Made by a program: the position numbers and the translations under genes
Notes under the pieces: generated by a model
What the model saw: only the letters and a program-made list of their open reading frames with translations
The model's database searches: none
What the model was told of the DNA's origin: nothing
Part shown: positions 1 through 53,555 of the stretch, in pieces
Numbering within the stretch: position 1 is the first letter of the stretch
Layout of the letters: each line of letters starts with the position of its first letter
Assembly: GCA_949710005.1 (NCBI GenBank)
Contig: OX453282.1
Location: 16,122,209 to 16,186,208 of the forward strand
From: Ricordea florida
Taxonomy: Eukaryota; Cnidaria; Anthozoa; Corallimorpharia; Ricordeidae
Reading direction: 5' to 3'
DNA length: 64,000 nt

Positions 1-744
1 CAAGTGTATCTAGTCACATACAGTCAGGCCGACACAACACGCTTCCCAACAAGGCAATCTTTTGTAGATATCGTCCTAGAATCTTTCTGTGGTTGCAATG
101 GAAGAATTTTGCAATGGTGCTGTTCTTTAGAAGAGCATGCCGATGGTGGATTACACTATCACATGTGCCTAAAATTTGATCGCCTTCAAAGATGGATATC
201 AAGCAAGAGAGCTCTGTTGGAGCAAGATGTTAGTGTGCACTATTCCGATAGCCATTCTAACTACTTCACCGCTTATCAATATGTCACTAAGGAAGATAGA
301 GAAGCACTGCATAGCGAAGGACACCCAGATCTAACGAATGAAGGTCTTAGACGAGGAAACCAGGCAAGTGCAGCAGTACACGCTCGAGGAATTGCACGCC
401 GAAACGAAAGCCGCCGTGTCAACAGATCAACTGATAGCACCAGATCGAGAGGTAGTAGGAAGCGAACGCGTATGTCTTCCTTTGAGCTGTCCGAATTAAT
501 AGTGAAGAAAGGTATTAAAACGAAACTGGAACTCATGAAATTAGCCAAAGATCAGAAAGCGGAAGGAAAAACAGATGTAGCGGAGTTTATAGTAAATAGA
601 GGGCCTAAAGTTGTCAGTGAAGTTCTTAATACAGCCTGGGAGATAGAGACTGCAGATGAACAGTTATTACGGCTTAATAAATCAAGAATAGACATTTTAC
701 AGGAGTGTAAAGACGAGCCATGCGTGGACGGATGCGAAGGTTAG
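1..744 (+). CDS. Rep N-terminal HUH endonuclease, unit 1 (5' end outside window)
   Basis: This is the same reading frame as the complete copy at 3618-4481, entered at residue 41. The HUH motif (His-Tyr-His) and the YxxK motif are intact. The start codon lies to the left of the window. The only difference noticed from the other units is a silent T at 84. The frame ends at the TAG shared by all units. Confidence 0.8.
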   Translation, partial: QVYLVTYSQADTTRFPTRQSFVDIVLESFCGCNGRILQWCCSLEEHADGGLHYHMCLKFDRLQRWISSKRALLEQDVSVHYSDSHSNYFTAYQYVTKEDREALHSEGHPDLTNEGLRRGNQASAAVHARGIARRNESRRVNRSTDSTRSRGSRKRTRMSSFELSELIVKKGIKTKLELMKLAKDQKAEGKTDVAEFIVNRGPKVVSEVLNTAWEIETADEQLLRLNKSRIDILQECKDEPCVDGCEG

Positions 745-1303
745 TGGTTAGTATGCGCCAAGCAGATCTTACAGGAGAATGGGATCACCGAAGGTAGTTT
801 TACCACAGCGGTATTAGAATTGTTGAAAAAAGGCAGAGGAAAATACCGTAATATTCTTATCGTGGGTCCTGCAGACTGTGGAAAAACGTTCATTCTCAAC
901 CCAATAACCAAGATCTATCACGTATTTTCAAACCCGGCAACATCTACATTTGCTTGGATAGGTGTGGAAAAGGCCGAGTGTGTCTTCCTTAACGACTTCC
1001 GGTGGAATAGCGCGCTTACTCCCCTGGCATGATCTACTTCTTATGTTAGAAGGACAACCAGTGCACCTCCCCGCTCCGAAATCACACTATGCTAAGGATA
1101 TCTTGTTTGAGAGAGACACCCCAATCTTCGCTACAAGCAAACACCCCATTGTTTATGTTAAGAGTGGTGCGATAGATGAGCGTGAAAGTGACATGATGCG
1201 CGTTAGATGGCTCGTTTTCAACTTTAACAGGGTTATACCCCGTGAACGTCAAAAAGAACTTGAATCGTGCGCGTCTTGCTTCGCAAGACTCATTTTGGGT
1301 TAG
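745..1303 (+). pseudogene. SF3 helicase segment, unit 1, frameshifted
   Basis: This is the helicase half in the same position as 4482-5039, but it carries one extra C at about 1019, in the stretch just after Walker B. The upstream frame therefore ends at 1032, and motif C and the C-terminus lie in another frame (open to 1303). Only this unit has the insertion, and it makes the distance from unit 1 to unit 2 3,737 bp upstream of this point. Its helicase product would be truncated after Walker B. Confidence 0.8.
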
Positions 1304-1786
1304 ACATATGTCGAATAACAATAGTCTATACTGCATTGCATTATTGTAAATAGTATGGCGATAGAAGTACAATGTTTTCAACGTTTTCATGGTTTACGCT
1401 TTACGTTTATGAAGTGTAAAGATGAAGGTCGAATTACTTTATATCAAACACCGTAAGCCGTAAACCGCGATAATCACTTAGCATTAGTAATGCAACACCG
1501 TTGAAAGGTAGCATTACAACTAAAACATTATGGAACATACTAACCTTTTTATAAATTCAGTGGCTTAGGAAAAATACCGTATAAAGTTCTATTTTTAAAA
1601 ATGCCATAATGACGAAGCCAAGTGATTATGCAAAAGAGATAAGGTTTGTTTACATTCTCAAACTAGTGCGGTACTGTCAAACATTTAAGAATTTATTCCC
1701 ACGGAAGTACAATATATACAAAATGTTGCGTATAAAAAAACTTTCCTCAGTACAATAGTACAATACTTCTGTCAGTCTTATCGTAT

Positions 1787-2866
1787 TTAGCATTTTGTAC
1801 GATGCCCACGATTTATTATAATTAAATCTATACGCTTGTTCATGGAGTCTATTAAATGGTCGATAACGCCGACAGGTATTTCTTGAATGTTCCTCTTCAC
1901 TCTTTCAGCGAACTGCTCCTTGTTTTCATATGTTATGTGTTTTTCTAACGCTTCTTCCTTTAACTGCTTCTTTGTGATATGAAACAAGTTCTCAATAGGG
2001 TTTAAATCCCGACTTCGAGGGGGAATAGGGAATATTGTTGCATGAACTGATTCCATTGCAATTTTTACCTTTGCGCTATTTTGACTCGGATCCCCGTCTT
2101 GTAAAAATAGTCGTGTTCTGCATTTTTCCGCTCTACAATAAACGTTTTCAAAATGCTCAAGAACAAATAGAGCAAAGAACTTGCCATCTAAATAATCGTA
2201 TTCTTCGCATAAAATGACACCCTTACGGTACGAAATCGCAACAAACACATGCACAACTCTACCGCCAGTTCCTTCGTGACTGCCCTTGGCTGTACAGTAC
2301 TGCGATAATCCTTCCTCTTTTTTTCTCCATATGCGGCCGCTAGCTGCTCTTGCCTGATCGAAGGGATTGTATTTGTGGTAAAAGCTTACTGCGTCGAGAT
2401 AAAAGCACACATCTTCTTTCCAGAAGTCTAAAGGACGCTCTCTTTTAATCTGTCTTGCGAATGATAGTCTCCTTACTACATCCTTATCAGTTAGAATACC
2501 CTTTTTCCTGGCTTGGTGATATCCATAGCCCAACCTTTCCATGTATCGTTGCATGGACCTGACTGATATGTCTTCTGTAGTAAGTCCTACCTCACACATC
2601 AGTCTCCTGCATGTGAAATGTCCAGTAGTTCGGCGTAAATTGTAGATTGCACGCTCAATCCTGCGCTCATAGCGCGCGCTTAATATTCGCGGTTTCCCTG
2701 CCTTACGTTTACTTCTTTTCTTCGTATTTGGGGATTTCACAGACCGAAACACCGTTGATCTTGACACGTGACACTTTCGTGCTATTTCATTGACTGTCAA
2801 GTCTCCCTGTTCTTTCAGGATCTGCACCTTTGCTGCTGTTTTGGGATCGATTTCACGCCAAACCAT
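1787..2866 (-). CDS. Tc1/mariner DD34E transposase, unit 1
   Basis: Full-length 359-residue copy with Lys183 and Cys359 (variant type a, shared with unit 3). All catalytic residues described for 5523-6602 are present. Confidence 0.92.
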   Translation of the reverse strand: MVWREIDPKTAAKVQILKEQGDLTVNEIARKCHVSRSTVFRSVKSPNTKKRSKRKAGKPRILSARYERRIERAIYNLRRTTGHFTCRRLMCEVGLTTEDISVRSMQRYMERLGYGYHQARKKGILTDKDVVRRLSFARQIKRERPLDFWKEDVCFYLDAVSFYHKYNPFDQARAASGRIWRKKEEGLSQYCTAKGSHEGTGGRVVHVFVAISYRKGVILCEEYDYLDGKFFALFVLEHFENVYCRAEKCRTRLFLQDGDPSQNSAKVKIAMESVHATIFPIPPRSRDLNPIENLFHITKKQLKEEALEKHITYENKEQFAERVKRNIQEIPVGVIDHLIDSMNKRIDLIIINRGHRTKC

Positions 2867-3340
2867 TTTGGTACTAAGTGATCGCTACACGCACAGAAAA
2901 CGTCTGATTCTAAAGGACATTTGGAACACTTTATTGTATTATTACGTGTTAAACAGCCTCGACATCAATACTTTCTTCGATTTCACGCTTTGTATTGTTA
3001 TAATAGCAATGTATAATGATGCTTAGTGCTTTACATGTCTTTTTTTCAATAAATGTAATGAGGCCCTTCTTTCAGACAATCGCCGTCAATATACCTTGAC
3101 ACCCTACTAAGACAATGACCACAATGTCCCCTCCCGATTCCCTTATATTCAAACCCCCTTCCCCGGTGCAATGTTGTTTGATAGAACGCCAGTGGGATGT
3201 CAATCGAAAGACACTCCAACATTGCTCCGGGGAAGGGGGTTTGAGCGGAATAAAACTACATACTTCGAAAGATAATTGACTTCTTCTAGTAAACACTGCA
3301 AAAGTGCGGTATGGGTGTCAAGGTTTTTGACGGGGATTGT

Positions 3341-3617
3341 CTAAATACACGTTTTCCTGATTTTGGACGTTTCACTGGTCGGAATGACATGAAATTTGAT
3401 AGTACGTACCCCCTAAATACTACGAACATGAAAGTGTATAACGAAAAAGAGAGGATGTCCTTATAGCTAAGTAGTTCAAGAAATTCTTTCGAAAAACGCA
3501 AATGTCTTATGATGCAAATATTATAATGGCGCGCTAAGAATTGTGGGCTGTGTATATAGACGTGAATTCTAGTCTGTACGTCAAACATTTTGATGTACAT
3601 TTCACCCAATTGATAGA
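3341..3617 (+). promoter_or_regulatory. Leader and probable promoter of rep
   Basis: This 277-bp stretch separates the nested inverted repeat from the rep start codon. A TATA-like run (TATATA at 3553-3558) lies about 60 bp upstream of the ATG, and an imperfect palindrome (GTACGTCAAA facing TTTGATGTAC) sits between them at about 3577-3599. The stretch is the same in every unit, so each copy has its own promoter candidate. That it acts as a promoter is inferred from position and the TATA-like run. Confidence 0.45.
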
Positions 3618-4481
3618 ATGGAGACAGGCGAAGATAGTCAGTGTGAAGTTAACCTTGAATACGAAGACAGTTGCAGTATAATCTCGGATATTGTAGAAGA
3701 GGAGTTAGATACGGTCCCTTCTGAGCCAATTGTAAGACAAGTGTATCTAGTCACATACAGTCAGGCCGACACAACACGCTTCCCAACAAGGCAATCTTTT
3801 GTAGATATCGTCCTAGAATCCTTCTGTGGTTGCAATGGAAGAATTTTGCAATGGTGCTGTTCTTTAGAAGAGCATGCCGATGGTGGATTACACTATCACA
3901 TGTGCCTAAAATTTGATCGCCTTCAAAGATGGATATCAAGCAAGAGAGCTCTGTTGGAGCAAGATGTTAGTGTGCACTATTCCGATAGCCATTCTAACTA
4001 CTTCACCGCTTATCAATATGTCACTAAGGAAGATAGAGAAGCACTGCATAGCGAAGGACACCCAGATCTAACGAATGAAGGTCTTAGACGAGGAAACCAG
4101 GCAAGTGCAGCAGTACACGCTCGAGGAATTGCACGCCGAAACGAAAGCCGCCGTGTCAACAGATCAACTGATAGCACCAGATCGAGAGGTAGTAGGAAGC
4201 GAACGCGTATGTCTTCCTTTGAGCTGTCCGAATTAATAGTGAAGAAAGGTATTAAAACGAAACTGGAACTCATGAAATTAGCCAAAGATCAGAAAGCGGA
4301 AGGAAAAACAGATGTAGCGGAGTTTATAGTAAATAGAGGGCCTAAAGTTGTCAGTGAAGTTCTTAATACAGCCTGGGAGATAGAGACTGCAGATGAACAG
4401 TTATTACGGCTTAATAAATCAAGAATAGACATTTTACAGGAGTGTAAAGACGAGCCATGCGTGGACGGATGCGAAGGTTAG
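3618..4481 (+). CDS. Replication initiator (Rep), HUH endonuclease domain, unit 2
   Basis: Rolling-circle initiators of this class nick one strand at an origin through an active-site tyrosine and stay bound to the 5' end. The 287-residue frame starts at ATG 3618, after an acidic N-terminal tail (residues 1-40). Motif I is YLVTYSQA (43-50), resembling the FLTYxxC-type motif of CRESS-DNA Reps. Motif II is His-Tyr-His (92-94), for metal binding. Motif III is Tyr134-Val-Thr-Lys137 (YxxK), with Tyr134 the predicted nucleophile. A basic Arg/Ser-rich stretch (about 158-190) and a charged helical linker follow. The frame ends at TAG 4479-4481, but the same frame continues open into the helicase. Domain order matches CRESS-DNA virus and parvovirus initiators; which of the two is closer cannot be decided here. 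Confidence 0.85.
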   Translation: METGEDSQCEVNLEYEDSCSIISDIVEEELDTVPSEPIVRQVYLVTYSQADTTRFPTRQSFVDIVLESFCGCNGRILQWCCSLEEHADGGLHYHMCLKFDRLQRWISSKRALLEQDVSVHYSDSHSNYFTAYQYVTKEDREALHSEGHPDLTNEGLRRGNQASAAVHARGIARRNESRRVNRSTDSTRSRGSRKRTRMSSFELSELIVKKGIKTKLELMKLAKDQKAEGKTDVAEFIVNRGPKVVSEVLNTAWEIETADEQLLRLNKSRIDILQECKDEPCVDGCEG

Positions 4482-4545
4482 TGGTTAGTATGCGCCAAGC
4501 AGATCTTACAGGAGAATGGGATCACCGAAGGTAGTTTTACCACAG
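4477..4545 (+). other. Candidate 69-nt intron spanning the TAG between Rep and helicase domains
   Basis: GTTAGT at 4477-4482 (preceded by AAG) resembles a 5' splice site. CCACAG ending at 4545, after a short pyrimidine run, resembles a 3' splice site, and CTTAC at 4505-4509 could be a branch point. The interval is 69 nt, a multiple of three, and contains the TAG, so removing it would keep the frame. The same signals recur in all nine units. Against it: it is short, other AG dinucleotides lie before 4545, and stop-codon readthrough or separate expression are alternatives. Confidence 0.4.
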
Positions 4546-5039
4546 CGGTATTAGAATTGTTGAAAAAAGGCAGAGGAAAATACCGTAATATTCTTATCGT
4601 GGGTCCTGCAGACTGTGGAAAAACGTTCATTCTCAACCCAATAACCAAGATCTATCACGTATTTTCAAACCCGGCAACATCTACATTTGCTTGGATAGGT
4701 GTGGAAAAGGCCGAGTGTGTCTTCCTTAACGACTTCCGGTGGAATAGCGCGCTTATCCCCTGGCATGATCTACTTCTTATGTTAGAAGGACAACCAGTGC
4801 ACCTCCCCGCTCCGAAATCACACTATGCTAAGGATATCTTGTTTGAGAGAGACACCCCAATCTTCGCTACAAGCAAACACCCCATTGTTTATGTTAAGAG
4901 TGGTGCGATAGATGAGCGTGAAAGTGACATGATGCGCGTTAGATGGCTCGTTTTCAACTTTAACAGGGTTATACCCCGTGAACGTCAAAAAGAACTTGAA
5001 TCGTGCGCGTCTTGCTTCGCAAGACTCATTTTGGGTTAG
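4482..5039 (+). CDS. Superfamily 3 (S3H) helicase domain, unit 2
   Basis: The frame is open directly after TAG 4479-4481 and in register with the Rep domain. Walker A is GPADCGKT (GxxxxGKT pattern), Walker B is in VFLNDFRW, and motif C is in FATSKH, where the usual Asn of SF3 motif C is Lys. An Arg-rich stretch (RVRWLVF) follows. SF3 helicases unwind DNA for viral and plasmid initiators and are normally fused behind the HUH domain. There is no in-frame ATG before Walker A; the first one comes after Walker B. This part therefore probably reaches the cell only as an extension of Rep, through splicing or readthrough. It ends at TAG 5037-5039. Confidence 0.82.
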   Translation, partial: WLVCAKQILQENGITEGSFTTAVLELLKKGRGKYRNILIVGPADCGKTFILNPITKIYHVFSNPATSTFAWIGVEKAECVFLNDFRWNSALIPWHDLLLMLEGQPVHLPAPKSHYAKDILFERDTPIFATSKHPIVYVKSGAIDERESDMMRVRWLVFNFNRVIPRERQKELESCASCFARLILG

Positions 5040-5522
5040 ACATATGTCGAATAACAATAGTCTATACTGCATTGCATTATTGTAAATAGTATGGCGATAG
5101 AAGTACAATGTTTTCAACGTTTTCATGGTTTACGCTTTACGTTTATGAAGTGTAAAGATGAAGGTCGAATTACTTTATATCAAACACCGTAAGCCGTAAA
5201 CCGCGATAATCACTTAGCATTAGTAATGCAACACCGTTGAAAGGTAGCATTACAACTAAAACATTATGGAACATACTAACCTTTTTATAAATTCAGTGGC
5301 TTAGGAAAAATACCGTATAAAGTTCTATTTTTAAAAATGCCATAATGACGAAGCCAAGTGATTATGCAAAAGAGATAAGGTTTGTTTACATTCTCAAACT
5401 AGTGCGGTACTGTCAAACATTTAAGAATTTATTCCCACGGAAGTACAATATATACAAAATGTTGCGTATAAAAAAACTTTCCTCAGTACAATAGTACAAT
5501 ACTTCTGTCAGTCTTATCGTAT
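5040..5522. other. Intergenic region between convergent helicase and transposase, with inverted repeats
   Basis: This 483-bp stretch holds no convincing gene. It contains a 15-bp inverted repeat with two mismatches (5127-5141 facing 5188-5202), and a second short pair with AATCACTT at about 5207 facing AAGTGATT at about 5356. On the - strand, AATAAA (TTTATT on + at 5428-5433) lies about 90 bp past the transposase stop and is a reasonable polyadenylation signal for it. No clear AATAAA follows the helicase on the + strand. Confidence 0.5.
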
Positions 5523-6602
5523 TTAGCATTTTGTACGATGCCCACGATTTATTATAATTAAATCTATACGCTTGTTCATGGAGTCTATTAAATGGTCGAT
5601 AACGCCGACAGGTATTTCTTGAATGTTCCTCTTCACTCTTTCAGCGAACTGCTCCTTGTTTTCATATGTTATGTGTTTTTCTAACGCTTCTTCCTTTAAC
5701 TGCTTCTTTGTGATATGAAACAAGTTCTCAATAGGGTTTAAATCCCGACTTCGAGGGGGAATAGGGAATATTGTTGCATGAACTGATTCCATTGCAATTT
5801 TTACCTTTGCGCTATTTTGACTCGGATCCCCGTCTTGTAAAAATAGTCGTGTTCTGCATTTTTCCGCTCTACAATAAACGTTTTCAAAATGCTCAAGAAC
5901 AAATAGAGCAAAGAACTTGCCATCTAAATAATCGTATTCTTCGCATAAAATGACACCCTTACGGTACGAAATCGCAACAAACACATGCACAACTCTACCG
6001 CCAGTTCCTTCGTGACTGCCCTTGGCTGTACAGTACTGCGATAATCCTTCCTCTCTTTTTCTCCATATGCGGCCGCTAGCTGCTCTTGCCTGATCGAAGG
6101 GATTGTATTTGTGGTAAAAGCTTACTGCGTCGAGATAAAAGCACACATCTTCTTTCCAGAAGTCTAAAGGACGCTCTCTTTTAATCTGTCTTGCGAATGA
6201 TAGTCTCCTTACTACATCCTTATCAGTTAGAATACCCTTTTTCCTGGCTTGGTGATATCCATAGCCCAACCTTTCCATGTATCGTTGCATGGACCTGACT
6301 GATATGTCTTCTGTAGTAAGTCCTACCTCACACATCAGTCTCCTGCATGTGAAATGTCCAGTAGTTCGGCGTAAATTGTAGATTGCACGCTCAATCCTGC
6401 GCTCATAGCGCGCGCTTAATATTCGCGGTTTCCCTGCCTTACGTTTACTTCTTTTCTTCGTATTTGGGGATTTCACAGACCGAAACACCGTTGATCTTGA
6501 CACGTGACACTTTCGTGCTATTTCATTGACTGTCAAGTCTCCCTGTTCTTTCAGGATCTGCACCTTTGCTGCTGTTTTGGGATCGATTTCACGCCAAACC
6601 AT
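5523..6602 (-). CDS. Tc1/mariner-family DD34E transposase, unit 2
   Basis: Cut-and-paste transposase of 359 residues without introns. A first helix-turn-helix lies at about residues 10-42, a basic stretch with a GRPR-like AGKPR motif at 49-60 (possible nuclear signal and DNA contact), and a second Tc3-type helix-turn-helix at about 62-140. The catalytic triad is Asp158 (YLDAV), Asp257 (LQDGDP) and Glu292 (DLNPIEN), with 34 residues between the last two, the Tc1 spacing. No stop or frameshift interrupts any of the nine copies, so the gene is plausibly functional. It is transcribed toward rep's 3' end and diverges from the next unit's rep. This copy has Arg183 and Cys359 (type b). A Tc1 transposase beside a Rep/SF3 initiator is unusual. 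Confidence 0.94.
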   Translation of the reverse strand: MVWREIDPKTAAKVQILKEQGDLTVNEIARKCHVSRSTVFRSVKSPNTKKRSKRKAGKPRILSARYERRIERAIYNLRRTTGHFTCRRLMCEVGLTTEDISVRSMQRYMERLGYGYHQARKKGILTDKDVVRRLSFARQIKRERPLDFWKEDVCFYLDAVSFYHKYNPFDQARAASGRIWRKREEGLSQYCTAKGSHEGTGGRVVHVFVAISYRKGVILCEEYDYLDGKFFALFVLEHFENVYCRAEKCRTRLFLQDGDPSQNSAKVKIAMESVHATIFPIPPRSRDLNPIENLFHITKKQLKEEALEKHITYENKEQFAERVKRNIQEIPVGVIDHLIDSMNKRIDLIIINRGHRTKC

Positions 6603-6810
6603 TTTGGTACTAAGTGATCGCTACACGCACAGAAAACGTCTGATTCTAAAGGACATTTGGAACACTTTATTGTATTATTACGTGTTAAACAGCCTCGACA
6701 TCAATACTTTCTTCGATTTCACGCTTTGTATTGTTATAATAGCAATGTATAATGATGCTTAGTGCTTTACATGTCTTTTTTTCAATAAATGTAATGAGGC
6801 CCTTCTTTCA
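6603..6810. other. Intergenic region upstream of the transposase, with a nicking-site-like stem-loop
   Basis: This is the 5' region of the - strand transposase. TATTATTAC at 6673-6681 fits NANTATTAC, the consensus cut by CRESS-DNA Reps. It is flanked by a 5-bp stem, AACAC (6661-6665) and GTGTT (6682-6686), which would place it in the loop. The match recurs in every unit, at 2937, 6673, 10409, 14145, 17881, 21617, 25353, 29089 and 32825. About one match per unit is expected by chance, so the call rests on the stem and the location. A second match, on the - strand at 4585-4593 inside the helicase, has no stem. Confidence 0.4.
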
Positions 6811-7077
6811 GACAATCGCCGTCAATATACCTTGACACCCTACTAAGACAATGACCACAATGTCCCCTCCCGATTCCCTTATATTCAAACCCCCTTCCCC
6901 GGTGCAATGTTGTTTGATAGAACGCCAGTGGGATGTCAATCGAAAGACACTCCAACATTGCTCCGGGGAAGGGGGTTTGAGCGGAATAAAACTACATACT
7001 TCGAAAGATAATTGACTTCTTCTAGTAAACACTGCAAAAGTGCGGTATGGGTGTCAAGGTTTTTGACGGGGATTGTC
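6811..7077. repeat. Nested inverted-repeat block (ITR-like or origin region), present in every unit
   Basis: Outer arms 6811-6840 and 7049-7077 are imperfect inverted repeats ending in GACAATC/GATTGTC. Inner arms 6885-6912 and 6953-6980 are 28-bp inverted repeats with one mismatch around a 40-nt loop. The word GTCAA or its complement TTGAC occurs six times in these 267 bp, where about 0.5 would be expected; these could be Rep-binding iterons. The array ends at 33228, flush with the outer end of the right outer arm. Equivalent blocks start at 3075, 6811, 10547, 14283, 18019, 21755, 25491, 29227 and 32963. It may be a terminal repeat shared between units of a concatemer, or a replication origin. 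Confidence 0.7.
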
Positions 7078-7353
7078 TAAATACACGTTTTCCTGATTTT
7101 GGACGTTTCACTGGTCGGAATGACATGAAATTTGATAGTACGTACCCCCTAAATACTACGAACATGAAAGTGTATAACGAAAAAGAGAGGATGTCCTTAT
7201 AGCTAAGTAGTTCAAGAAATTCTTTCGAAAAACGCAAATGTCTTATGATGCAAATATTATAATGGCGCGCTAAGAATTGTGGGCTGTGTATATAGACGTG
7301 AATTCTAGTCTGTACGTCAAACATTTTGATGTACATTTCACCCAATTGATAGA

Positions 7354-8217
7354 ATGGAGACAGGCGAAGATAGTCAGTGTGAAGTTAACCTTGAATACGA
7401 AGACAGTTGCAGTATAATCTCGGATATTGTAGAAGAGGAGTTAGATACGGTCCCTTCTGAGCCAATTGTAAGACAAGTGTATCTAGTCACATACAGTCAG
7501 GCCGACACAACACGCTTCCCAACAAGGCAATCTTTTGTAGATATCGTCCTAGAATCCTTCTGTGGTTGCAATGGAAGAATTTTGCAATGGTGCTGTTCTT
7601 TAGAAGAGCATGCCGATGGTGGATTACACTATCACATGTGCCTAAAATTTGATCGCCTTCAAAGATGGATATCAAGCAAGAGAGCTCTGTTGGAGCAAGA
7701 TGTTAGTGTGCACTATTCCGATAGCCATTCTAACTACTTCACCGCTTATCAATATGTCACTAAGGAAGATAGAGAAGCACTGCATAGCGAAGGACACCCA
7801 GATCTAACGAATGAAGGTCTTAGACGAGGAAACCAGGCAAGTGCAGCAGTACACGCTCGAGGAATTGCACGCCGAAACGAAAGCCGCCGTGTCAACAGAT
7901 CAACTGATAGCACCAGATCGAGAGGTAGTAGGAAGCGAACGCGTATGTCTTCCTTTGAGCTGTCCGAATTAATAGTGAAGAAAGGTATTAAAACGAAACT
8001 GGAACTCATGAAATTAGCCAAAGATCAGAAAGCGGAAGGAAAAACAGATGTAGCGGAGTTTATAGTAAATAGAGGGCCTAAAGTTGTCAGTGAAGTTCTT
8101 AATACAGCCTGGGAGATAGAGACTGCAGATGAACAGTTATTACGGCTTAATAAATCAAGAATAGACATTTTACAGGAGTGTAAAGACGAGCCATGCGTGG
8201 ACGGATGCGAAGGTTAG
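7354..8217 (+). CDS. Rep HUH endonuclease domain, unit 3
   Basis: Intact 287-residue copy with no coding difference from unit 2. It ends at the conserved TAG. Confidence 0.85.
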   Translation: METGEDSQCEVNLEYEDSCSIISDIVEEELDTVPSEPIVRQVYLVTYSQADTTRFPTRQSFVDIVLESFCGCNGRILQWCCSLEEHADGGLHYHMCLKFDRLQRWISSKRALLEQDVSVHYSDSHSNYFTAYQYVTKEDREALHSEGHPDLTNEGLRRGNQASAAVHARGIARRNESRRVNRSTDSTRSRGSRKRTRMSSFELSELIVKKGIKTKLELMKLAKDQKAEGKTDVAEFIVNRGPKVVSEVLNTAWEIETADEQLLRLNKSRIDILQECKDEPCVDGCEG

Positions 8218-8775
8218 TGGTTAGTATGCGCCAAGCAGATCTTACAGGAGAATGGGATCACCGAAGGTAGTTTTACCACAGCGGTATTAGAATTGTTGAA
8301 AAAAGGCAGAGGAAAATACCGTAATATTCTTATCGTGGGTCCTGCAGACTGTGGAAAAACGTTCATTCTCAACCCAATAACCAAGATCTATCACGTATTT
8401 TCAAACCCGGCAACATCTACATTTGCTTGGATAGGTGTGGAAAAGGCCGAGTGTGTCTTCCTTAACGACTTCCGGTGGAATAGCGCGCTTATCCCCTGGC
8501 ATGATCTACTTCTTATGTTAGAAGGACAACCAGTGCACCTCCCCGCTCCGAAATCACACTATGCTAAGGATATCTTGTTTGAGAGAGACACCCCAATCTT
8601 CGCTACAAGCAAACACCCCATTGTTTATGTTAAGAGTGGTGCGATAGATGAGCGTGAAAGTGACATGATGCGCGTTAGATGGCTCGTTTTCAACTTTAAC
8701 AGGGTTATACCCCGTGAACGTCAAAAAGAACTTGAATCGTGCGCGTCTTGCTTCGCAAGACTCATTTTGGGTTAG
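8218..8775 (+). CDS. SF3 helicase domain, unit 3
   Basis: Intact and in frame with the preceding Rep, with Walker A, Walker B and motif C all present. It has no ATG before Walker A. Confidence 0.82.
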   Translation, partial: WLVCAKQILQENGITEGSFTTAVLELLKKGRGKYRNILIVGPADCGKTFILNPITKIYHVFSNPATSTFAWIGVEKAECVFLNDFRWNSALIPWHDLLLMLEGQPVHLPAPKSHYAKDILFERDTPIFATSKHPIVYVKSGAIDERESDMMRVRWLVFNFNRVIPRERQKELESCASCFARLILG

Positions 8776-9258
8776 ACATATGTCGAATAACAATAGTCTA
8801 TACTGCATTGCATTATTGTAAATAGTATGGCGATAGAAGTACAATGTTTTCAACGTTTTCATGGTTTACGCTTTACGTTTATGAAGTGTAAAGATGAAGG
8901 TCGAATTACTTTATATCAAACACCGTAAGCCGTAAACCGCGATAATCACTTAGCATTAGTAATGCAACACCGTTGAAAGGTAGCATTACAACTAAAACAT
9001 TATGGAACATACTAACCTTTTTATAAATTCAGTGGCTTAGGAAAAATACCGTATAAAGTTCTATTTTTAAAAATGCCATAATGACGAAGCCAAGTGATTA
9101 TGCAAAAGAGATAAGGTTTGTTTACATTCTCAAACTAGTGCGGTACTGTCAAACATTTAAGAATTTATTCCCACGGAAGTACAATATATACAAAATGTTG
9201 CGTATAAAAAAACTTTCCTCAGTACAATAGTACAATACTTCTGTCAGTCTTATCGTAT

Positions 9259-23719: not shown

Positions 23720-24202
23720 ACATATGTCGAATAACAATAGTCTATACTGCATTGCATTATTGTAAATAGTATGGCGATAGAAGTACAATGTTTTCAACGT
23801 TTTCATGGTTTACGCTTTACGTTTATGAAGTGTAAAGATGAAGGTCGAATTACTTTATATCAAACACCGTAAGCCGTAAACCGCGATAATCACTTAGCAT
23901 TAGTAATGCAACACCGTTGAAAGGTAGCATTACAACTAAAACATTATGGAACATACTAACCTTTTTATAAATTCAGTGGCTTAGGAAAAATACCGTATAA
24001 AGTTCTATTTTTAAAAATGCCATAATGACGAAGCCAAGTGATTATGCAAAAGAGATAAGGTTTGTTTACATTCTCAAACTAGTGCGGTACTGTCAAACAT
24101 TTAAGAATTTATTCCCACGGAAGTACAATATATACAAAATGTTGCGTATAAAAAAACTTTCCTCAGTACAATAGTACAATACTTCTGTCAGTCTTATCGT
24201 AT

Positions 24203-25282
24203 TTAGTATTTTGTACGATGCCCACGATTTATTATAATTAAATCTATACGCTTGTTCATGGAGTCTATTAAATGGTCGATAACGCCGACAGGTATTTCTT
24301 GAATGTTCCTCTTCACTCTTTCAGCGAACTGCTCCTTGTTTTCATATGTTATGTGTTTTTCTAACGCTTCTTCCTTTAACTGCTTCTTTGTGATATGAAA
24401 CAAGTTCTCAATAGGGTTTAAATCCCGACTTCGAGGGGGAATAGGGAATATTGTTGCATGAACTGATTCCATTGCAATTTTTACCTTTGCGCTATTTTGA
24501 CTCGGATCCCCGTCTTGTAAAAATAGTCGTGTTCTGCATTTTTCCGCTCTACAATAAACGTTTTCAAAATGCTCAAGAACAAATAGAGCAAAGAACTTGC
24601 CATCTAAATAATCGTATTCTTCGCATAAAATGACACCCTTACGGTACGAAATCGCAACAAACACATGCACAACTCTACCGCCAGTTCCTTCGTGACTGCC
24701 CTTGGCTGTACAGTACTGCGATAATCCTTCCTCTTTTTTTCTCCATATGCGGCCGCTAGCTGCTCTTGCCTGATCGAAGGGATTGTATTTGTGGTAAAAG
24801 CTTACTGCGTCGAGATAAAAGCACACATCTTCTTTCCAGAAGTCTAAAGGACGCTCTCTTTTAATCTGTCTTGCGAATGATAGTCTCCTTACTACATCCT
24901 TATCAGTTAGAATACCCTTTTTCCTGGCTTGGTGATATCCATAGCCCAACCTTTCCATGTATCGTTGCATGGACCTGACTGATATGTCTTCTGTAGTAAG
25001 TCCTACCTCACACATCAGTCTCCTGCATGTGAAATGTCCAGTAGTTCGGCGTAAATTGTAGATTGCACGCTCAATCCTGCGCTCATAGCGCGCGCTTAAT
25101 ATTCGCGGTTTCCCTGCCTTACGTTTACTTCTTTTCTTCGTATTTGGGGATTTCACAGACCGAAACACCGTTGATCTTGACACGTGACACTTTCGTGCTA
25201 TTTCATTGACTGTCAAGTCTCCCTGTTCTTTCAGGATCTGCACCTTTGCTGCTGTTTTGGGATCGATTTCACGCCAAACCAT
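24203..25282 (-). CDS. Tc1/mariner DD34E transposase, unit 7
   Basis: Intact copy with Lys183 and Tyr359 (type c, shared only with unit 4, three units away). Confidence 0.93.
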   Translation of the reverse strand: MVWREIDPKTAAKVQILKEQGDLTVNEIARKCHVSRSTVFRSVKSPNTKKRSKRKAGKPRILSARYERRIERAIYNLRRTTGHFTCRRLMCEVGLTTEDISVRSMQRYMERLGYGYHQARKKGILTDKDVVRRLSFARQIKRERPLDFWKEDVCFYLDAVSFYHKYNPFDQARAASGRIWRKKEEGLSQYCTAKGSHEGTGGRVVHVFVAISYRKGVILCEEYDYLDGKFFALFVLEHFENVYCRAEKCRTRLFLQDGDPSQNSAKVKIAMESVHATIFPIPPRSRDLNPIENLFHITKKQLKEEALEKHITYENKEQFAERVKRNIQEIPVGVIDHLIDSMNKRIDLIIINRGHRTKY

Positions 25283-26033
25283 TTTGGTACTAAGTGATCG
25301 CTACACGCACAGAAAACGTCTGATTCTAAAGGACATTTGGAACACTTTATTGTATTATTACGTGTTAAACAGCCTCGACATCAATACTTTCTTCGATTTC
25401 ACGCTTTGTATTGTTATAATAGCAATGTATAATGATGCTTAGTGCTTTACATGTCTTTTTTTCAATAAATGTAATGAGGCCCTTCTTTCAGACAATCGCC
25501 GTCAATATACCTTGACACCCTACTAAGACAATGACCACAATGTCCCCTCCCGATTCCCTTATATTCAAACCCCCTTCCCCGGTGCAATGTTGTTTGATAG
25601 AACGCCAGTGGGATGTCAATCGAAAGACACTCCAACATTGCTCCGGGGAAGGGGGTTTGAGCGGAATAAAACTACATACTTCGAAAGATAATTGACTTCT
25701 TCTAGTAAACACTGCAAAAGTGCGGTATGGGTGTCAAGGTTTTTGACGGGGATTGTCTAAATACACGTTTTCCTGATTTTGGACGTTTCACTGGTCGGAA
25801 TGACATGAAATTTGATAGTACGTACCCCCTAAATACTACGAACATGAAAGTGTATAACGAAAAAGAGAGGATGTCCTTATAGCTAAGTAGTTCAAGAAAT
25901 TCTTTCGAAAAACGCAAATGTCTTATGATGCAAATATTATAATGGCGCGCTAAGAATTGTGGGCTGTGTATATAGACGTGAATTCTAGTCTGTACGTCAA
26001 ACATTTTGATGTACATTTCACCCAATTGATAGA

Positions 26034-26897
26034 ATGGAGACAGGCGAAGATAGTCAGTGTGAAGTTAACCTTGAATACGAAGACAGTTGCAGTATAATCT
26101 CGGATATTGTAGAAGAGGAGTTAGATACGGTCCCTTCTGAGCCAATTGTAAGACAAGTGTATCTAGTCACATACAGTCAGGCCGACACAACACGCTTCCC
26201 AACAAGGCAATCTTTTGTAGATATCGTCCTAGAATCCTTCTGTGGTTGCAATGGAAGAATTTTGCAATGGTGCTGTTCTTTAGAAGAGCATGCCGATGGT
26301 GGATTACACTATCACATGTGCCTAAAATTTGATCGCCTTCAAAGATGGATATCAAGCAAGAGAGCTCTGTTGGAGCAAGATGTTAGTGTGCACTATTCCG
26401 ATAGCCATTCTAACTACTTCACCGCTTATCAATATGTCACTAAGGAAGATAGAGAAGCACTGCATAGCGAAGGACACCCAGATCTAACGAATGAAGGTCT
26501 TAGATGAGGAAACCAGGCAAGTGCAGCAGTACACGCTCGAGGAATTGCACGCCGAAACGAAAGCCGCCGTGTCAACAGATCAACTGATAGCACCAGATCG
26601 AGAGGTAGTAGGAAGCGAACGCGTATGTCTTCCTTTGAGCTGTCCGAATTAATAGTGAAGAAAGGTATTAAAACGAAACTGGAACTCATGAAATTAGCCA
26701 AAGATCAGAAAGCGGAAGGAAAAACAGATGTAGCGGAGTTTATAGTAAATAGAGGGCCTAAAGTTGTCAGTGAAGTTCTTAATACAGCCTGGGAGATAGA
26801 GACTGCAGATGAACAGTTATTACGGCTTAATAAATCAAGAATAGACATTTTACAGGAGTGTAAAGACGAGCCATGCGTGGACGGATGCGAAGGTTAG
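26034..26897 (+). pseudogene. Rep HUH endonuclease domain, unit 8, with a nonsense mutation
   Basis: Codon 158 is TGA (26505-26507) where all other units have CGA, a C to T change at a CpG and hence a common spontaneous transition. The HUH and YxxK motifs lie before the stop, so a 157-residue catalytic fragment could still be made. The linker and helicase would be lost. The frame is otherwise open to the conserved TAG at 26895-26897. Confidence 0.85.
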
Positions 26898-27455
26898 TGG
26901 TTAGTATGCGCCAAGCAGATCTTACAGGAGAATGGGATCACCGAAGGTAGTTTTACCACAGCGGTATTAGAATTGTTGAAAAAAGGCAGAGGAAAATACC
27001 GTAATATTCTTATCGTGGGTCCTGCAGACTGTGGAAAAACGTTCATTCTCAACCCAATAACCAAGATCTATCACGTATTTTCAAACCCGGCAACATCTAC
27101 ATTTGCTTGGATAGGTGTGGAAAAGGCCGAGTGTGTCTTCCTTAACGACTTCCGGTGGAATAGCGCGCTTATCCCCTGGCATGATCTACTTCTTATGTTA
27201 GAAGGACAACCAGTGCACCTCCCCGCTCCGAAATCACACTATGCTAAGGATATCTTGTTTGAGAGAGACACCCCAATCTTCGCTACAAGCAAACACCCCA
27301 TTGTTTATGTTAAGAGTGGTGCGATAGATGAGCGTGAAAGTGACATGATGCGCGTTAGATGGCTCGTTTTCAACTTTAACAGGGTTATACCCCGTGAACG
27401 TCAAAAAGAACTTGAATCGTGCGCGTCTTGCTTCGCAAGACTCATTTTGGGTTAG
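26898..27455 (+). CDS. SF3 helicase domain, unit 8
   Basis: The domain frame itself is intact, but it sits behind both the conserved TAG and the extra nonsense codon of this unit's Rep, so it is probably not expressed as part of Rep. Confidence 0.7.
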   Translation, partial: WLVCAKQILQENGITEGSFTTAVLELLKKGRGKYRNILIVGPADCGKTFILNPITKIYHVFSNPATSTFAWIGVEKAECVFLNDFRWNSALIPWHDLLLMLEGQPVHLPAPKSHYAKDILFERDTPIFATSKHPIVYVKSGAIDERESDMMRVRWLVFNFNRVIPRERQKELESCASCFARLILG

Positions 27456-27938
27456 ACATATGTCGAATAACAATAGTCTATACTGCATTGCATTATTGTA
27501 AATAGTATGGCGATAGAAGTACAATGTTTTCAACGTTTTCATGGTTTACGCTTTACGTTTATGAAGTGTAAAGATGAAGGTCGAATTACTTTATATCAAA
27601 CACCGTAAGCCGTAAACCGCGATAATCACTTAGCATTAGTAATGCAACACCGTTGAAAGGTAGCATTACAACTAAAACATTATGGAACATACTAACCTTT
27701 TTATAAATTCAGTGGCTTAGGAAAAATACCGTATAAAGTTCTATTTTTAAAAATGCCATAATGACGAAGCCAAGTGATTATGCAAAAGAGATAAGGTTTG
27801 TTTACATTCTCAAACTAGTGCGGTACTGTCAAACATTTAAGAATTTATTCCCACGGAAGTACAATATATACAAAATGTTGCGTATAAAAAAACTTTCCTC
27901 AGTACAATAGTACAATACTTCTGTCAGTCTTATCGTAT

Positions 27939-29018
27939 TTAGCATTTTGTACGATGCCCACGATTTATTATAATTAAATCTATACGCTTGTTCATGGAGT
28001 CTATTAAATGGTCGATAACGCCGACAGGTATTTCTTGAATGTTCCTCTTCACTCTTTCAGCGAACTGCTCCTTGTTTTCATATGTTATGTGTTTTTCTAA
28101 CGCTTCTTCCTTTAACTGCTTCTTTGTGATATGAAACAAGTTCTCAATAGGGTTTAAATCCCGACTTCGAGGGGGAATAGGGAATATTGTTGCATGAACT
28201 GATTCCATTGCAATTTTTACCTTTGCGCTATTTTGACTCGGATCCCCGTCTTGTAAAAATAGTCGTGTTCTGCATTTTTCCGCTCTACAATAAACGTTTT
28301 CAAAATGCTCAAGAACAAATAGAGCAAAGAACTTGCCATCTAAATAATCGTATTCTTCGCATAAAATGACACCCTTACGGTACGAAATCGCAACAAACAC
28401 ATGCACAACTCTACCGCCAGTTCCTTCGTGACTGCCCTTGGCTGTACAGTACTGCGATAATCCTTCCTCTCTTTTTCTCCATATGCGGCCGCTAGCTGCT
28501 CTTGCCTGATCGAAGGGATTGTATTTGTGGTAAAAGCTTACTGCGTCGAGATAAAAGCACACATCTTCTTTCCAGAAGTCTAAAGGACGCTCTCTTTTAA
28601 TCTGTCTTGCGAATGATAGTCTCCTTACTACATCCTTATCAGTTAGAATACCCTTTTTCCTGGCTTGGTGATATCCATAGCCCAACCTTTCCATGTATCG
28701 TTGCATGGACCTGACTGATATGTCTTCTGTAGTAAGTCCTACCTCACACATCAGTCTCCTGCATGTGAAATGTCCAGTAGTTCGGCGTAAATTGTAGATT
28801 GCACGCTCAATCCTGCGCTCATAGCGCGCGCTTAATATTCGCGGTTTCCCTGCCTTACGTTTACTTCTTTTCTTCGTATTTGGGGATTTCACAGACCGAA
28901 ACACCGTTGATCTTGACACGTGACACTTTCGTGCTATTTCATTGACTGTCAAGTCTCCCTGTTCTTTCAGGATCTGCACCTTTGCTGCTGTTTTGGGATC
29001 GATTTCACGCCAAACCAT
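27939..29018 (-). CDS. Tc1/mariner DD34E transposase, unit 8
   Basis: Intact copy with Arg183 and Cys359 (type b). Confidence 0.93.
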   Translation of the reverse strand: MVWREIDPKTAAKVQILKEQGDLTVNEIARKCHVSRSTVFRSVKSPNTKKRSKRKAGKPRILSARYERRIERAIYNLRRTTGHFTCRRLMCEVGLTTEDISVRSMQRYMERLGYGYHQARKKGILTDKDVVRRLSFARQIKRERPLDFWKEDVCFYLDAVSFYHKYNPFDQARAASGRIWRKREEGLSQYCTAKGSHEGTGGRVVHVFVAISYRKGVILCEEYDYLDGKFFALFVLEHFENVYCRAEKCRTRLFLQDGDPSQNSAKVKIAMESVHATIFPIPPRSRDLNPIENLFHITKKQLKEEALEKHITYENKEQFAERVKRNIQEIPVGVIDHLIDSMNKRIDLIIINRGHRTKC

Positions 29019-29769
29019 TTTGGTACTAAGTGATCGCTACACGCACAGAAAACGTCTGATTCTAAAGGACATTTGGAACACTTTATTGTATTATTACGTG
29101 TTAAACAGCCTCGACATCAATACTTTCTTCGATTTCACGCTTTGTATTGTTATAATAGCAATGTATAATGATGCTTAGTGCTTTACATGTCTTTTTTTCA
29201 ATAAATGTAATGAGGCCCTTCTTTCAGACAATCGCCGTCAATATACCTTGACACCCTACTAAGACAATGACCACAATGTCCCCTCCCGATTCCCTTATAT
29301 TCAAACCCCCTTCCCCGGTGCAATGTTGTTTGATAGAACGCCAGTGGGATGTCAATCGAAAGACACTCCAACATTGCTCCGGGGAAGGGGGTTTGAGCGG
29401 AATAAAACTACATACTTCGAAAGATAATTGACTTCTTCTAGTAAACACTACAAAAGTGCGGTATGGGTGTCAAGGTTTTTGACGGGGATTGTCTAAATAC
29501 ACGTTTTCCTGATTTTGGACGTTTCACTGGTCGGAATGACATGAAATTTGATAGTACGTACCCCCTAAATACTACGAACATGAAAGTGTATAACGAAAAA
29601 GAGAGGATGTCCTTATAGCTAAGTAGTTCAAGAAATTCTTTCGAAAAACGCAAATGTCTTATGATGCAAATATTATAATGGCGCGCTAAGAATTGTGGGC
29701 TGTGTATATAGACGTGAATTCTAGTCTGTACGTCAAACATTTTGATGTACATTTCACCCAATTGATAGA

Positions 29770-30633
29770 ATGGAGACAGGCGAAGATAGTCAGTGTGAAG
29801 TTAACCTTGAATACGAAGACAGTTGCAGTATAATCTCGGATATTGTAGAAGAGGAGTTAGATACGGTCCCTTCTGAGCCAATTGTAAGACAAGTGTATCT
29901 AGTCACATACAGTCAGGCCGACACAACACGCTTCCCAACAAGGCAATCTTTTGTAGATATCGTCCTAGAATCCTTCTGTGGTTGCAATGGAAGAATTTTG
30001 CAATGGTGCTGTTCTTTAGAAGAGCATGCCGATGGTGGATTACACTATCACATGTGCCTAAAATTTGATCGCCTTCAAAGATGGATATCAAGCAAGAGAG
30101 CTCTGTTGGAGCAAGATGTTAGTGTGCACTATTCCGATAGCCATTCTAACTACTTCACCGCTTATCAATATGTCACTAAGGAAGATAGAGAAGCACTGCA
30201 TAGCGAAGGACACCCAGATCTAACGAATGAAGGTCTTAGACGAGGAAACCAGGCAAGTGCAGCAGTACACGCTCGAGGAATTGCACGCCGAAACGAAAGC
30301 CGCCGTGTCAACAGATCAACTGATAGCACCAGATCGAGAGGTAGTAGGAAGCGAACGCGTATGTCTTCCTTTGAGCTGTCCGAATTAATAGTGAAGAAAG
30401 GTATTAAAACGAAACTGGAACTCATGAAATTAGCCAAAGATCAGAAAGCGGAAGGAAAAACAGATGTAGCGGAGTTTATAGTAAATAGAGGGCCTAAAGT
30501 TGTCAGTGAAGTTCTTAATACAGCCTGGGAGATAGAGACTGCAGATGAACAGTTATTACGGCTTAATAAATCAAGAATAGACATTTTACAGGAGTGTAAA
30601 GACGAGCCATGCGTGGACGGATGCGAAGGTTAG
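29770..30633 (+). CDS. Rep HUH endonuclease domain, unit 9 (last unit)
   Basis: Intact copy identical in protein to unit 2. Confidence 0.85.
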   Translation: METGEDSQCEVNLEYEDSCSIISDIVEEELDTVPSEPIVRQVYLVTYSQADTTRFPTRQSFVDIVLESFCGCNGRILQWCCSLEEHADGGLHYHMCLKFDRLQRWISSKRALLEQDVSVHYSDSHSNYFTAYQYVTKEDREALHSEGHPDLTNEGLRRGNQASAAVHARGIARRNESRRVNRSTDSTRSRGSRKRTRMSSFELSELIVKKGIKTKLELMKLAKDQKAEGKTDVAEFIVNRGPKVVSEVLNTAWEIETADEQLLRLNKSRIDILQECKDEPCVDGCEG

Positions 30634-31191
30634 TGGTTAGTATGCGCCAAGCAGATCTTACAGGAGAATGGGATCACCGAAGGTAGTTTTACCACAGCGG
30701 TATTAGAATTGTTGAAAAAAGGCAGAGGAAAATACCGTAATATTCTTATCGTGGGTCCTGCAGACTGTGGAAAAACGTTCATTCTCAACCCAATAACCAA
30801 GATCTATCACGTATTTTCAAACCCGGCAACATCTACATTTGCTTGGATAGGTGTGGAAAAGGCCGAGTGTGTCTTCCTTAACGACTTCCGGTGGAATAGC
30901 GCGCTTATCCCCTGGCATGATCTACTTCTTATGTTAGAAGGACAACCAGTGCACCTCCCCGCTCCGAAATCACACTATGCTAAGGATATCTTGTTTGAGA
31001 GAGACACCCCAATCTTCGCTACAAGCAAACACCCCATTGTTTATGTTAAGAGTGGTGCGATAGATGAGCGTGAAAGTGACATGATGCGCGTTAGATGGCT
31101 CGTTTTCAACTTTAACAGGGTTATACCCCGTGAACGTCAAAAAGAACTTGAATCGTGCGCGTCTTGCTTCGCAAGACTCATTTTGGGTTAG
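30634..31191 (+). CDS. SF3 helicase domain, unit 9
   Basis: Intact, in frame behind the conserved TAG. A private T to C change at 31290 lies downstream, in the inverted repeat of the convergent intergenic region. Confidence 0.82.
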   Translation, partial: WLVCAKQILQENGITEGSFTTAVLELLKKGRGKYRNILIVGPADCGKTFILNPITKIYHVFSNPATSTFAWIGVEKAECVFLNDFRWNSALIPWHDLLLMLEGQPVHLPAPKSHYAKDILFERDTPIFATSKHPIVYVKSGAIDERESDMMRVRWLVFNFNRVIPRERQKELESCASCFARLILG

Positions 31192-31674
31192 ACATATGTC
31201 GAATAACAATAGTCTATACTGCATTGCATTATTGTAAATAGTATGGCGATAGAAGTACAATGTTTTCAACGTTTTCATGGTTTACGCTTCACGTTTATGA
31301 AGTGTAAAGATGAAGGTCGAATTACTTTATATCAAACACCGTAAGCCGTAAACCGCGATAATCACTTAGCATTAGTAATGCAACACCGTTGAAAGGTAGC
31401 ATTACAACTAAAACATTATGGAACATACTAACCTTTTTATAAATTCAGTGGCTTAGGAAAAATACCGTATAAAGTTCTATTTTTAAAAATGCCATAATGA
31501 CGAAGCCAAGTGATTATGCAAAAGAGATAAGGTTTGTTTACATTCTCAAACTAGTGCGGTACTGTCAAACATTTAAGAATTTATTCCCACGGAAGTACAA
31601 TATATACAAAATGTTGCGTATAAAAAAACTTTCCTCAGTACAATAGTACAATACTTCTGTCAGTCTTATCGTAT

Positions 31675-32754
31675 TTAGCATTTTGTACGATGCCCACGAT
31701 TTATTATAATTAAATCTATACGCTTGTTCATGGAGTCTATTAAATGGTCGATAACGCCGACAGGTATTTCTTGAATGTTCCTCTTCACTCTTTCAGCGAA
31801 CTGCTCCTTGTTTTCATATGTTATGTGTTTTTCTAACGCTTCTTCCTTTAACTGCTTCTTTGTGATATGAAACAAGTTCTCAATAGGGTTTAAATCCCGA
31901 CTTCGAGGGGGAATAGGGAATATTGTTGCATGAACTGATTCCATTGCAATTTTTACCTTTGCGCTATTTTGACTCGGATCCCCGTCTTGTAAAAATAGTC
32001 GTGTTCTGCATTTTTCCGCTCTACAATAAACGTTTTCAAAATGCTCAAGAACAAATAGAGCAAAGAACTTGCCATCTAAATAATCGTATTCTTCGCATAA
32101 AATGACACCCTTACGGTACGAAATCGCAACAAACACATGCACAACTCTACCGCCAGTTCCTTCGTGACTGCCCTTGGCTGTACAGTACTGCGATAATCCT
32201 TCCTCTCTTTTTCTCCATATGCGGCCGCTAGCTGCTCTTGCCTGATCGAAGGGATTGTATTTGTGGTAAAAGCTTACTGCATCGAGATAAAAGCACACAT
32301 CTTCTTTCCAGAAGTCTAAAGGACGCTCTCTTTTAATCTGTCTTGCGAATGATAGTCTCCTTACTACATCCTTATCAGTTAGAATACCCTTTTTCCTGGC
32401 TTGGTGATATCCATAGCCCAACCTTTCCATGTATCGTTGCATGGACCTGACTGATATGTCTTCTGTAGTAAGTCCTACCTCACACATCAGTCTCCTGCAT
32501 GTGAAATGTCCAGTAGTTCGGCGTAAATTGTAGATTGCACGCTCAATCCTGCGCTCATAGCGCGCGCTTAATATTCGCGGTTTCCCTGCCTTACGTTTAC
32601 TTCTTTTCTTCGTATTTGGGGATTTCACAGACCGAAACACCGTTGATCTTGACACGTGACACTTTCGTGCTATTTCATTGACTGTCAAGTCTCCCTGTTC
32701 TTTCAGGATCTGCACCTTTGCTGCTGTTTTGGGATCGATTTCACGCCAAACCAT
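31675..32754 (-). CDS. Tc1/mariner DD34E transposase, unit 9
   Basis: Intact copy with Arg183 and Cys359 (type b). A private change at 32281 is silent and falls in the codon of catalytic Asp158. Confidence 0.93.
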   Translation of the reverse strand: MVWREIDPKTAAKVQILKEQGDLTVNEIARKCHVSRSTVFRSVKSPNTKKRSKRKAGKPRILSARYERRIERAIYNLRRTTGHFTCRRLMCEVGLTTEDISVRSMQRYMERLGYGYHQARKKGILTDKDVVRRLSFARQIKRERPLDFWKEDVCFYLDAVSFYHKYNPFDQARAASGRIWRKREEGLSQYCTAKGSHEGTGGRVVHVFVAISYRKGVILCEEYDYLDGKFFALFVLEHFENVYCRAEKCRTRLFLQDGDPSQNSAKVKIAMESVHATIFPIPPRSRDLNPIENLFHITKKQLKEEALEKHITYENKEQFAERVKRNIQEIPVGVIDHLIDSMNKRIDLIIINRGHRTKC

Positions 32755-33228
32755 TTTGGTACTAAGTGATCGCTACACGCACAGAAAACGTCTGATTCTA
32801 AAGGACATTTGGAACACTTTATTGTATTATTACGTGTTAAACAGCCTCGACATCAATACTTTCTTCGATTTCACGCTTTGTATTGTTATAATAGCAATGT
32901 ATAATGATGCTTAGTGCTTTACATGTCTTTTTTTCAATAAATGTAATGAGGCCCTTCTTTCAGACAATCGCCGTCAATATACCTTGACACCCTACTAAGA
33001 CAATGACCACAATGTCCCCTCCCGATTCCCTTATATTCAAACCCCCTTCCCCGGTGCAATGTTGTTTGATAGAACGCCAGTGGGATGTCAATCGAAAGAC
33101 ACTCCAACATTGCTCCGGGGAAGGGGGTTTGAGCGGAATAAAACTACATACTTCGAAAGATAATTGACTTCTTCTAGTAAACACTGCAAAAGTGCGGTAT
33201 GGGTGTCAAGGTTTTTGACGGGGATTGT

Positions 33229-33356
33229 GGGTTTTGCACACTCAATGAAAAGCTGAAATAAATGGCCAAAGTAAACTGTATACACACGCCTACAAAAATT
33301 TACAGCCGACTTTAAGCTGGTTTTTAGGATTGAGCGACTTGCATGCGATTTGCATA
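33229..33356. other. Flank immediately right of the array; no feature seen
   Basis: Unique sequence between the array end and the first dispersed repeat. It starts GGGTTTTGC, not with the TA dinucleotide left by Tc1-type insertion. Confidence 0.5.
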
Positions 33357-53473: not shown

Positions 53474-53555
53474 CTGCAATACCTTTGGCGAGTCTAGGAG
53501 TAACGAAAGGAAAAATATAACCCTGTAGTACATTAATCTTGACTAGTTTAATCAA

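What the first reader, a model, noticed from the sequence alone, without database searches (positions are those of the whole stretch)
1..33228. Chimeric element joining a rolling-circle Rep/SF3 initiator and a Tc1 DD34E transposase, amplified as a tandem array
Each 3,736-bp unit encodes an HUH endonuclease with HYH and YxxK motifs, an SF3 helicase and a complete Tc1/mariner transposase in opposite orientation. HUH/SF3 initiators belong to CRESS-DNA viruses, parvoviruses and related plasmids; Tc1 transposases normally travel alone between short TIRs. Open transposase frames in all nine copies and near identity of units suggest recent activity. The pairing could give one element two lifestyles: rolling-circle copying and cut-and-paste integration. 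I know of no described element with this layout, but I cannot search.
Basis: partly seen in the sequence, partly recalled or inferred. Interest (0 to 1): 0.92.

Follow-up and report, generated by a model that had tools for sequence, protein, structure and literature searches.

The report
Jumping gene with its own replicator
This animal genome carries a family of small mobile elements that combine a virus-like DNA-copying gene with a cut-and-paste jumping gene, and that are found as single copies and as whole tandem arrays, which suggests one element with two ways of life.

Summary
The array is nine 3.74-kb units plus one extra 263-bp repeat; 661 bp of it lie left of the window and it ends at 33227. 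Each unit has a Rep gene (geminivirus-like HUH nuclease, parvovirus/papillomavirus-like SF3 helicase) and a convergent Tc1/IS630 DD34E transposase. Genome-wide, 46 of 63 Rep places (9 in this array) have this transposase within 3.5 kb (chance 0.1), including families only 40-50% identical. Single copies are [repeat-genes-repeat], with direct terminal repeats that are each a conserved imperfect palindrome. Solo repeats also exist. At 46 of 47 insertions with both ends in hand (36 solos, 9 monomers, 2 arrays) a matching 2-bp duplication flanks the ends. Best reading: a composite mobile element whose integrants are n units + 1 repeat (n = 0, 1, 9). The transposase pastes it in, and Rep probably copies it from the palindromic repeat and makes concatemers. 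Transposase integration is well supported; rolling-circle copying is inferred, and unequal recombination between repeats could also make arrays and solos. Rep is interrupted by a stop in all nine units here. My paper searches found no description.

The parts
1..33227 (+). tandem array: nine 3.74-kb units plus one terminal repeat; 661 bp of it lie left of the window (start C11:16121548)
3077..3339 (+). 263-bp palindromic repeat CAATC...GATTG shared by neighbouring units; further copies start at 6813, 10549, 14285, 18021, 21757, 25493, 29229 and 32965 (last one ends at 33227)
3149..3244 (.). inner hairpin, arms 3149-3176 and 3217-3244; core CAATGTTG in 6 of 6 aligned repeats of several families (CAACATTG in 5 of 6)
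3618..4481 (+). Rep first half: HUH endonuclease, 287 aa (one copy per unit, +3736 each)
4557..5039 (+). Rep second half: SF3 helicase, 160 aa, same frame behind an in-frame stop
5523..6602 (-). Tc1/IS630 DD34E transposase, 359 aa, convergent with Rep (also 1787-2866, then +3736 each to 31675-32754)
33228..33229 (.). target-site duplication TG at the right end of the array; its twin TG lies directly left of C11:16121548 (L009)

Best explanation
A composite mobile element made of a Rep replicon and a Tc1/IS630 transposon. The 263-bp palindromic repeat does two jobs: its outer arms are transposase ends and its inner hairpin is probably the Rep origin. Integrated forms are n units + 1 repeat (n = 0, 1, 9). 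Shown: anatomy, recurrence of the pair, and 2-bp duplications at the outer ends of solos, monomers and arrays. Inferred: Rep nicks in the repeat and copies from the left to the right repeat ('copy-out'), which regenerates the full palindrome in a circle; further rolling-circle copying makes head-to-tail concatemers; the transposase cuts any left end and any downstream right end and pastes that piece into a C-NN-G site ('paste-in').
Against: No circle, single-stranded form or expression was looked at or seen. Unequal recombination between direct repeats explains arrays and solos as well. Rep of this array is interrupted in all nine units, so its amplification would need Rep in trans. Two array variants are shared by non-adjacent units, as after exchange. 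One of 47 sites has no matching duplication (L073). 17 of 63 Rep places lack a transposase within 3.5 kb; 18 of 31 transposase loci without HUH show no Rep trace. With one pair per family the Rep/transposase distance correlation is not significant (five own families r 0.75, 447 of 5000 permutations; seven with two contig-length-matched pairs r 0.53, 487 of 5000).
Confidence: 0.6

Rival explanations
1. Cut-and-paste element whose arrays and solo repeats are made only by homologous recombination between its direct terminal repeats (as LTR elements give solo LTRs); Rep does something else or is a passenger.
For: Direct repeats of about 98-99.6% identity; solos as well as arrays keep the flanking duplication; variants at two positions shared between non-adjacent array units; Rep interrupted in all nine units.
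Against: Does not explain why open Rep frames of about 450-540 aa with nearly invariant HUH and SF3 motifs are found in several families, why the inner hairpin is conserved between families, or why regularly spaced copies recur at nine loci.
Confidence: 0.27
2. An animal ssDNA virus (CRESS or parvovirus type) that captured a Tc1 transposase and still makes particles.
For: Rep fold and hairpin repeats resemble these viruses.
Against: No third frame of 150 aa or more in the unit; no relative confirmed in viral contigs by pattern scans (6 and 216 candidate stretches); terminal repeats are direct, not inverted.
Confidence: 0.06
3. One-off Tc1 insertion beside an endogenous Rep, later amplified, or an assembly artefact.
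For: Only that units are almost identical.
Against: The pair recurs in diverged families; unit variants differ; both array ends abut other DNA with matching TG. Reads were not available.
Confidence: 0.02

Closest known systems
Tc1/mariner - IS630 transposons
   Same: DD34E transposase, HTH DNA-binding part, 2-bp target duplication, mostly TA in family F5
   Different: second gene (Rep), palindromic direct repeats of about 185-290 bp at both ends, array and solo forms; family F1 duplicates TG, CA, GA, AG and others as well as TA
CRESS-DNA virus / geminivirus-type Rep and parvovirus NS1
   Same: HUH plus SF3 domains; HUH fold nearest geminivirus Rep, full-length relative nearest AAV Rep68 and papillomavirus E1
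   Different: no capsid-sized frame in the unit, no viral-contig relative found, integrates with a transposase-type duplication
Teratorn (piggyBac + herpesvirus; PMC10175614, passages read)
   Same: DNA replicon fused with a DDE transposase; the proposed origin is also integration of a unit out of a rolling-circle concatemer, flanked by two transposon copies
   Different: 4 kb against 180 kb, other transposase and replicon families, Rep-type initiator
Helitrons / rolling-circle transposons (recalled)
   Same: HUH enzyme in a eukaryotic mobile element
   Different: SF3 not Pif1-type helicase; target duplication present; separate DDE transposase
Bacterial HUH replicons or conjugative elements that integrate with DDE transposases (for example TnGBS, some filamentous phages; recalled only)
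   Same: HUH enzyme for copying or transfer and DDE enzyme for integration
   Different: bacterial; other layout (recalled, not compared here)

Membership tests
Tc1/mariner-IS630 | DD34E catalytic triad | tested here: met
   D158, D257, E292 with 34 residues between; DDE_3 above cut-off; IS630 model E 7.9e-24, below its curated cut-off; aligns to Sleeping Beauty, E 1e-5
Tc1/mariner-IS630 | 2-bp target-site duplication | tested here: met
   46 of 47 sites
Tc1/mariner-IS630 | duplication is TA | tested here: not met
   F1: 4 of 20 TA. F5: 5 of 5 full copies TA; 17 of 20 solos TA/TA, one AA, one TT, one mismatched
Tc1/mariner-IS630 | single transposase gene between short TIRs | tested here: not met
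   Rep gene present; ends are palindromic direct repeats of about 185-290 bp
CRESS-DNA virus | HUH Rep with SF3 helicase | tested here: met
CRESS-DNA virus | capsid gene | tested here: not met
   no other frame of 150 aa or more in the unit; the largest other frames of a full unit are about 107 aa and were not searched singly; spliced frames not tested
Parvovirus | terminal repeats as inverted hairpins on a linear genome | tested here: not met
   repeats are palindromic but in direct orientation at the full copies examined
Helitron | Rep fused to Pif1-type helicase, no target duplication | tested here: not met
   SF3-like helicase; duplications present
Rolling-circle replicon | circular or concatemeric episomal form | not testable with these tools
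   needs DNA or reads

The most novel reading that the evidence does not exclude
A new class of animal mobile element that alternates between a Rep-driven rolling-circle episome and Tc1-type integration ('copy-out, paste-in'). One palindromic repeat serves as both origin and transposon end. Multimers of any length can be inserted at once, and deletion derivatives are carried in trans, so it could be a direct source of new satellite DNA.
Probability: 0.5. Interest if true: 0.92.

Novelty: categorically new. Interest (0 to 1): 0.85.

Why it matters
Eukaryotic DNA transposons are sorted into cut-and-paste (DDE) and rolling-circle (HUH) kinds (recalled); this element carries both enzymes and a repeat that looks built for both. 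It gives a concrete, testable route by which a replicon becomes a transposon, and by which tandem arrays (satellite-like DNA) could arise in one insertion. The Rep family is large (1455 database proteins among 7994 scored candidates), but of the rows listed few carry any name and none a function. Each module belongs to a known superfamily; the new thing is the combination and the n + 1 repeat layout.

Tried and rejected
Rejected: one-off insertion (recurrence); assembly artefact is unlikely (differing unit variants and matching ends) but reads were not available. Rejected: integration by Rep alone (2-bp duplications and CAA/TTG ends). Rejected: simple composite of two independent MITE insertions, because the inner flanks of the repeats are GA/TC rather than duplications. 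Weaker than I first thought: that the palindrome is clearly longer on the inner side. Inner flanks extend it by 3-5 bp (8 copies with both inner ends found), outer flanks by 0-4 bp (9 copies), partly because C-TA-G is itself a palindrome. Led nowhere: viral contigs, prokaryote contigs (58 candidate stretches, none confirmed), Rfam, PHROGs for Rep; the PDB sequence profile for Rep gave only weak E1/AAV Rep40 hits (E 0.03-0.15). Contig lengths shared between the listed Rep and transposase proteins: three above 5 kb (13745, 24302, 515071; shifted mean 0.04) suggest the pair on other contigs, but three below 5 kb (3485, 3803, 4136) are no more than chance (mean 2.2) and I do not count them. Two of the ten pairs rested on such lengths (P0004/P0146 on 4136, P0010/P0097 on 515071), so I repeated the test without them. 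Papers: ten searches listed no title or abstract start describing a Rep + Tc1 element (one search listed 12 of 33 papers); seen were listings plus passages of PMC5013282, PMC6668415 and PMC10175614. Repbase and most subscription journals could not be searched. VIA-align rows cover residues 35-156 of ORF1; other parts were barely tested. No call names the species of the window.

Full report
What is there. The window lies on contig C11 of a 538-Mb genome. From the left edge to 33227 it is a head-to-tail array with period 3736. The 10 kb left of the window show that 661 bp of the array lie outside; it holds nine units (3737 and 8 x 3736 bp) and ten copies of a 263-bp repeat, one at each end and one at each joint. 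Each unit encodes Rep on the + strand and a Tc1/IS630 transposase on the - strand, the two genes convergent. The transposase is open in 9 of 9 copies with a DD34E triad and aligns with Sleeping Beauty. Rep is split by an in-frame stop in 9 of 9 units; one unit has an earlier stop and the first unit has a 1-bp length change. Open Rep frames of about 450-540 aa exist at other loci.

The pair recurs. Of 63 Rep-HUH places of at least 450 bp in this genome (this array's nine included), 46 have the transposase within 3.5 kb (random placement mean 0.12, at most 2 in any of 1000 trials) and 42 of these are convergent. Array units are counted singly: 20 of the 46 lie in the arrays on C11, C3, C16 and C9. 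Of 31 transposase loci without HUH (one array collapsed to one locus), 13 have a helicase piece beside them and 18 have no Rep trace. Search counts are lower bounds and some stretches are withheld. Rep and transposase distances agree over eight pairs of this genome (r 0.97, 1 of 5000 permutations), but this is driven by close pairs; with five, one per family, r is 0.75 and 447 of 5000 permutations reach it.

Ends and target. Single copies are repeat-body-repeat with both repeats in the same orientation (L010, L011, L012, L024, L025, L026, L031, L032, L017). Solo repeats are also scattered in the genome. I fetched 20 F1 repeats: 16 were solos with both ends; three had lost an end and one belonged to a larger copy, and these four were dropped before the count. 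I fetched 20 F5 solos and dropped none. Loci for which I did not have or did not locate both ends (L013-L016, L018-L023, L027-L030) are not in the count. Matching 2-bp duplications: 27 of 27 (16 F1 solos, 3 F1, 5 F5 and 1 F2 full copies, the nine-unit array TG/TG, and a second array on C2 TA/TA) and 19 of 20 F5 solos. F1 uses TG 7, TA 4, CA 3, GA 2, AG 2, TC 1, CT 1 (shuffled mean 4.2 matches of 20, maximum 11 in 10,000), inside a palindromic target with C next to the duplication in 37 of 40 half-sites. F5 is mostly TA. The unit-internal flanks of the same repeats read GA (8 of 8 found, of 9 copies) and TC (9 of 9) and extend the palindrome by 3-5 bp, whereas the outer flanks are host DNA (extension 0-4 bp, partly because C-TA-G is a palindrome). 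So the outer ends stop where a transposase would be expected to cut, and the inner boundary is a different, conserved one.

The repeat. It folds far better than shuffled sequence (z -10.6, -6.3, -6.2 in three families). Six aligned repeats share the terminal arms and an inner hairpin with CAATGTTG in 6 of 6 and CAACATTG in 5 of 6, beside C- and G-rich stems. I take the inner hairpin as the likely Rep origin (inference).

How it most likely works. Shown: composite anatomy, recurrence, and 2-bp duplications around solos, monomers and arrays. Inferred: Rep nicks in the left repeat, copies to the right repeat and releases a circle with one full palindrome; rolling-circle copying gives concatemers; the transposase cuts one left end and any right end downstream, so integrants are n units + 1 repeat. 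Regularly spaced copies at nine loci, including deletion derivatives with 2.06-2.43-kb units, fit this; three of the nine show only two copies, and two have one off-register gap. The main rival is recombination between the direct repeats, which also yields arrays and solos with intact duplications; shared variants at two positions in non-adjacent units and the interrupted Rep favour some role for it here.

Comparison and verdict. The transposase is a Tc1/IS630 member by triad and 2-bp duplication, with relaxed TA in F1. Rep is a HUH-SF3 initiator of the CRESS/parvovirus type. The element fits neither family's definition as a whole. The nearest published idea is Teratorn, a piggyBac-herpesvirus fusion whose proposed origin also passes through a concatemer (PMC10175614, passages). 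Ten paper searches listed no Rep + Tc1 element, but Repbase and most subscription journals were not searchable, so priority is open.

Noticed in passing
window 51603-53555 (-) and 38506-41554 (+): Long frames without Pfam or NCBIfam match; the first belongs to a multi-copy family in this genome (126 matches, 68 of 600 candidates scored, several frames of about 1000 aa), and the frames at 38506-41554 look similar by eye. An unannotated repeat family.
   Followed up: partly
window 45697-45977: 57-bp tandem repeat (4.9 copies) inside a 175-aa frame on the - strand.
   Followed up: no
window 56942-57318: G-rich 40-bp minisatellite built of GGGTAA-like pieces (9.4 copies).
   Followed up: no
C2:23.93 Mb (L033, L034), C2:15.73-15.78, C14:24.30, C4:14.92 Mb: Arrays of shortened units (2.06-2.43 kb) in which my queries found only part of the helicase (and, at C2:15.7, a transposase piece with stops); the C2:23.93 Mb array is bounded by TA duplications. 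They look like deletion derivatives turned into satellite-like DNA.
   Followed up: partly
L010-L012, L037-L055 against L024-L032, L057-L076: Two families of the same element differ in target duplication: F1 relaxed (TG, CA, GA, AG, TA and others), F5 almost only TA, a natural comparison for Tc1 target choice.
   Followed up: partly
L024:994-1212 and 5618-7067: One F5 copy sits inside a minisatellite, so the pre-insertion site could be read from the neighbouring repeats.
   Followed up: no
L023:2005-3417 (-): Open 471-aa Rep frame without a transposase frame of 150 aa or more in the fetched 8 kb (only 2 kb on the expected side were held).
   Followed up: partly
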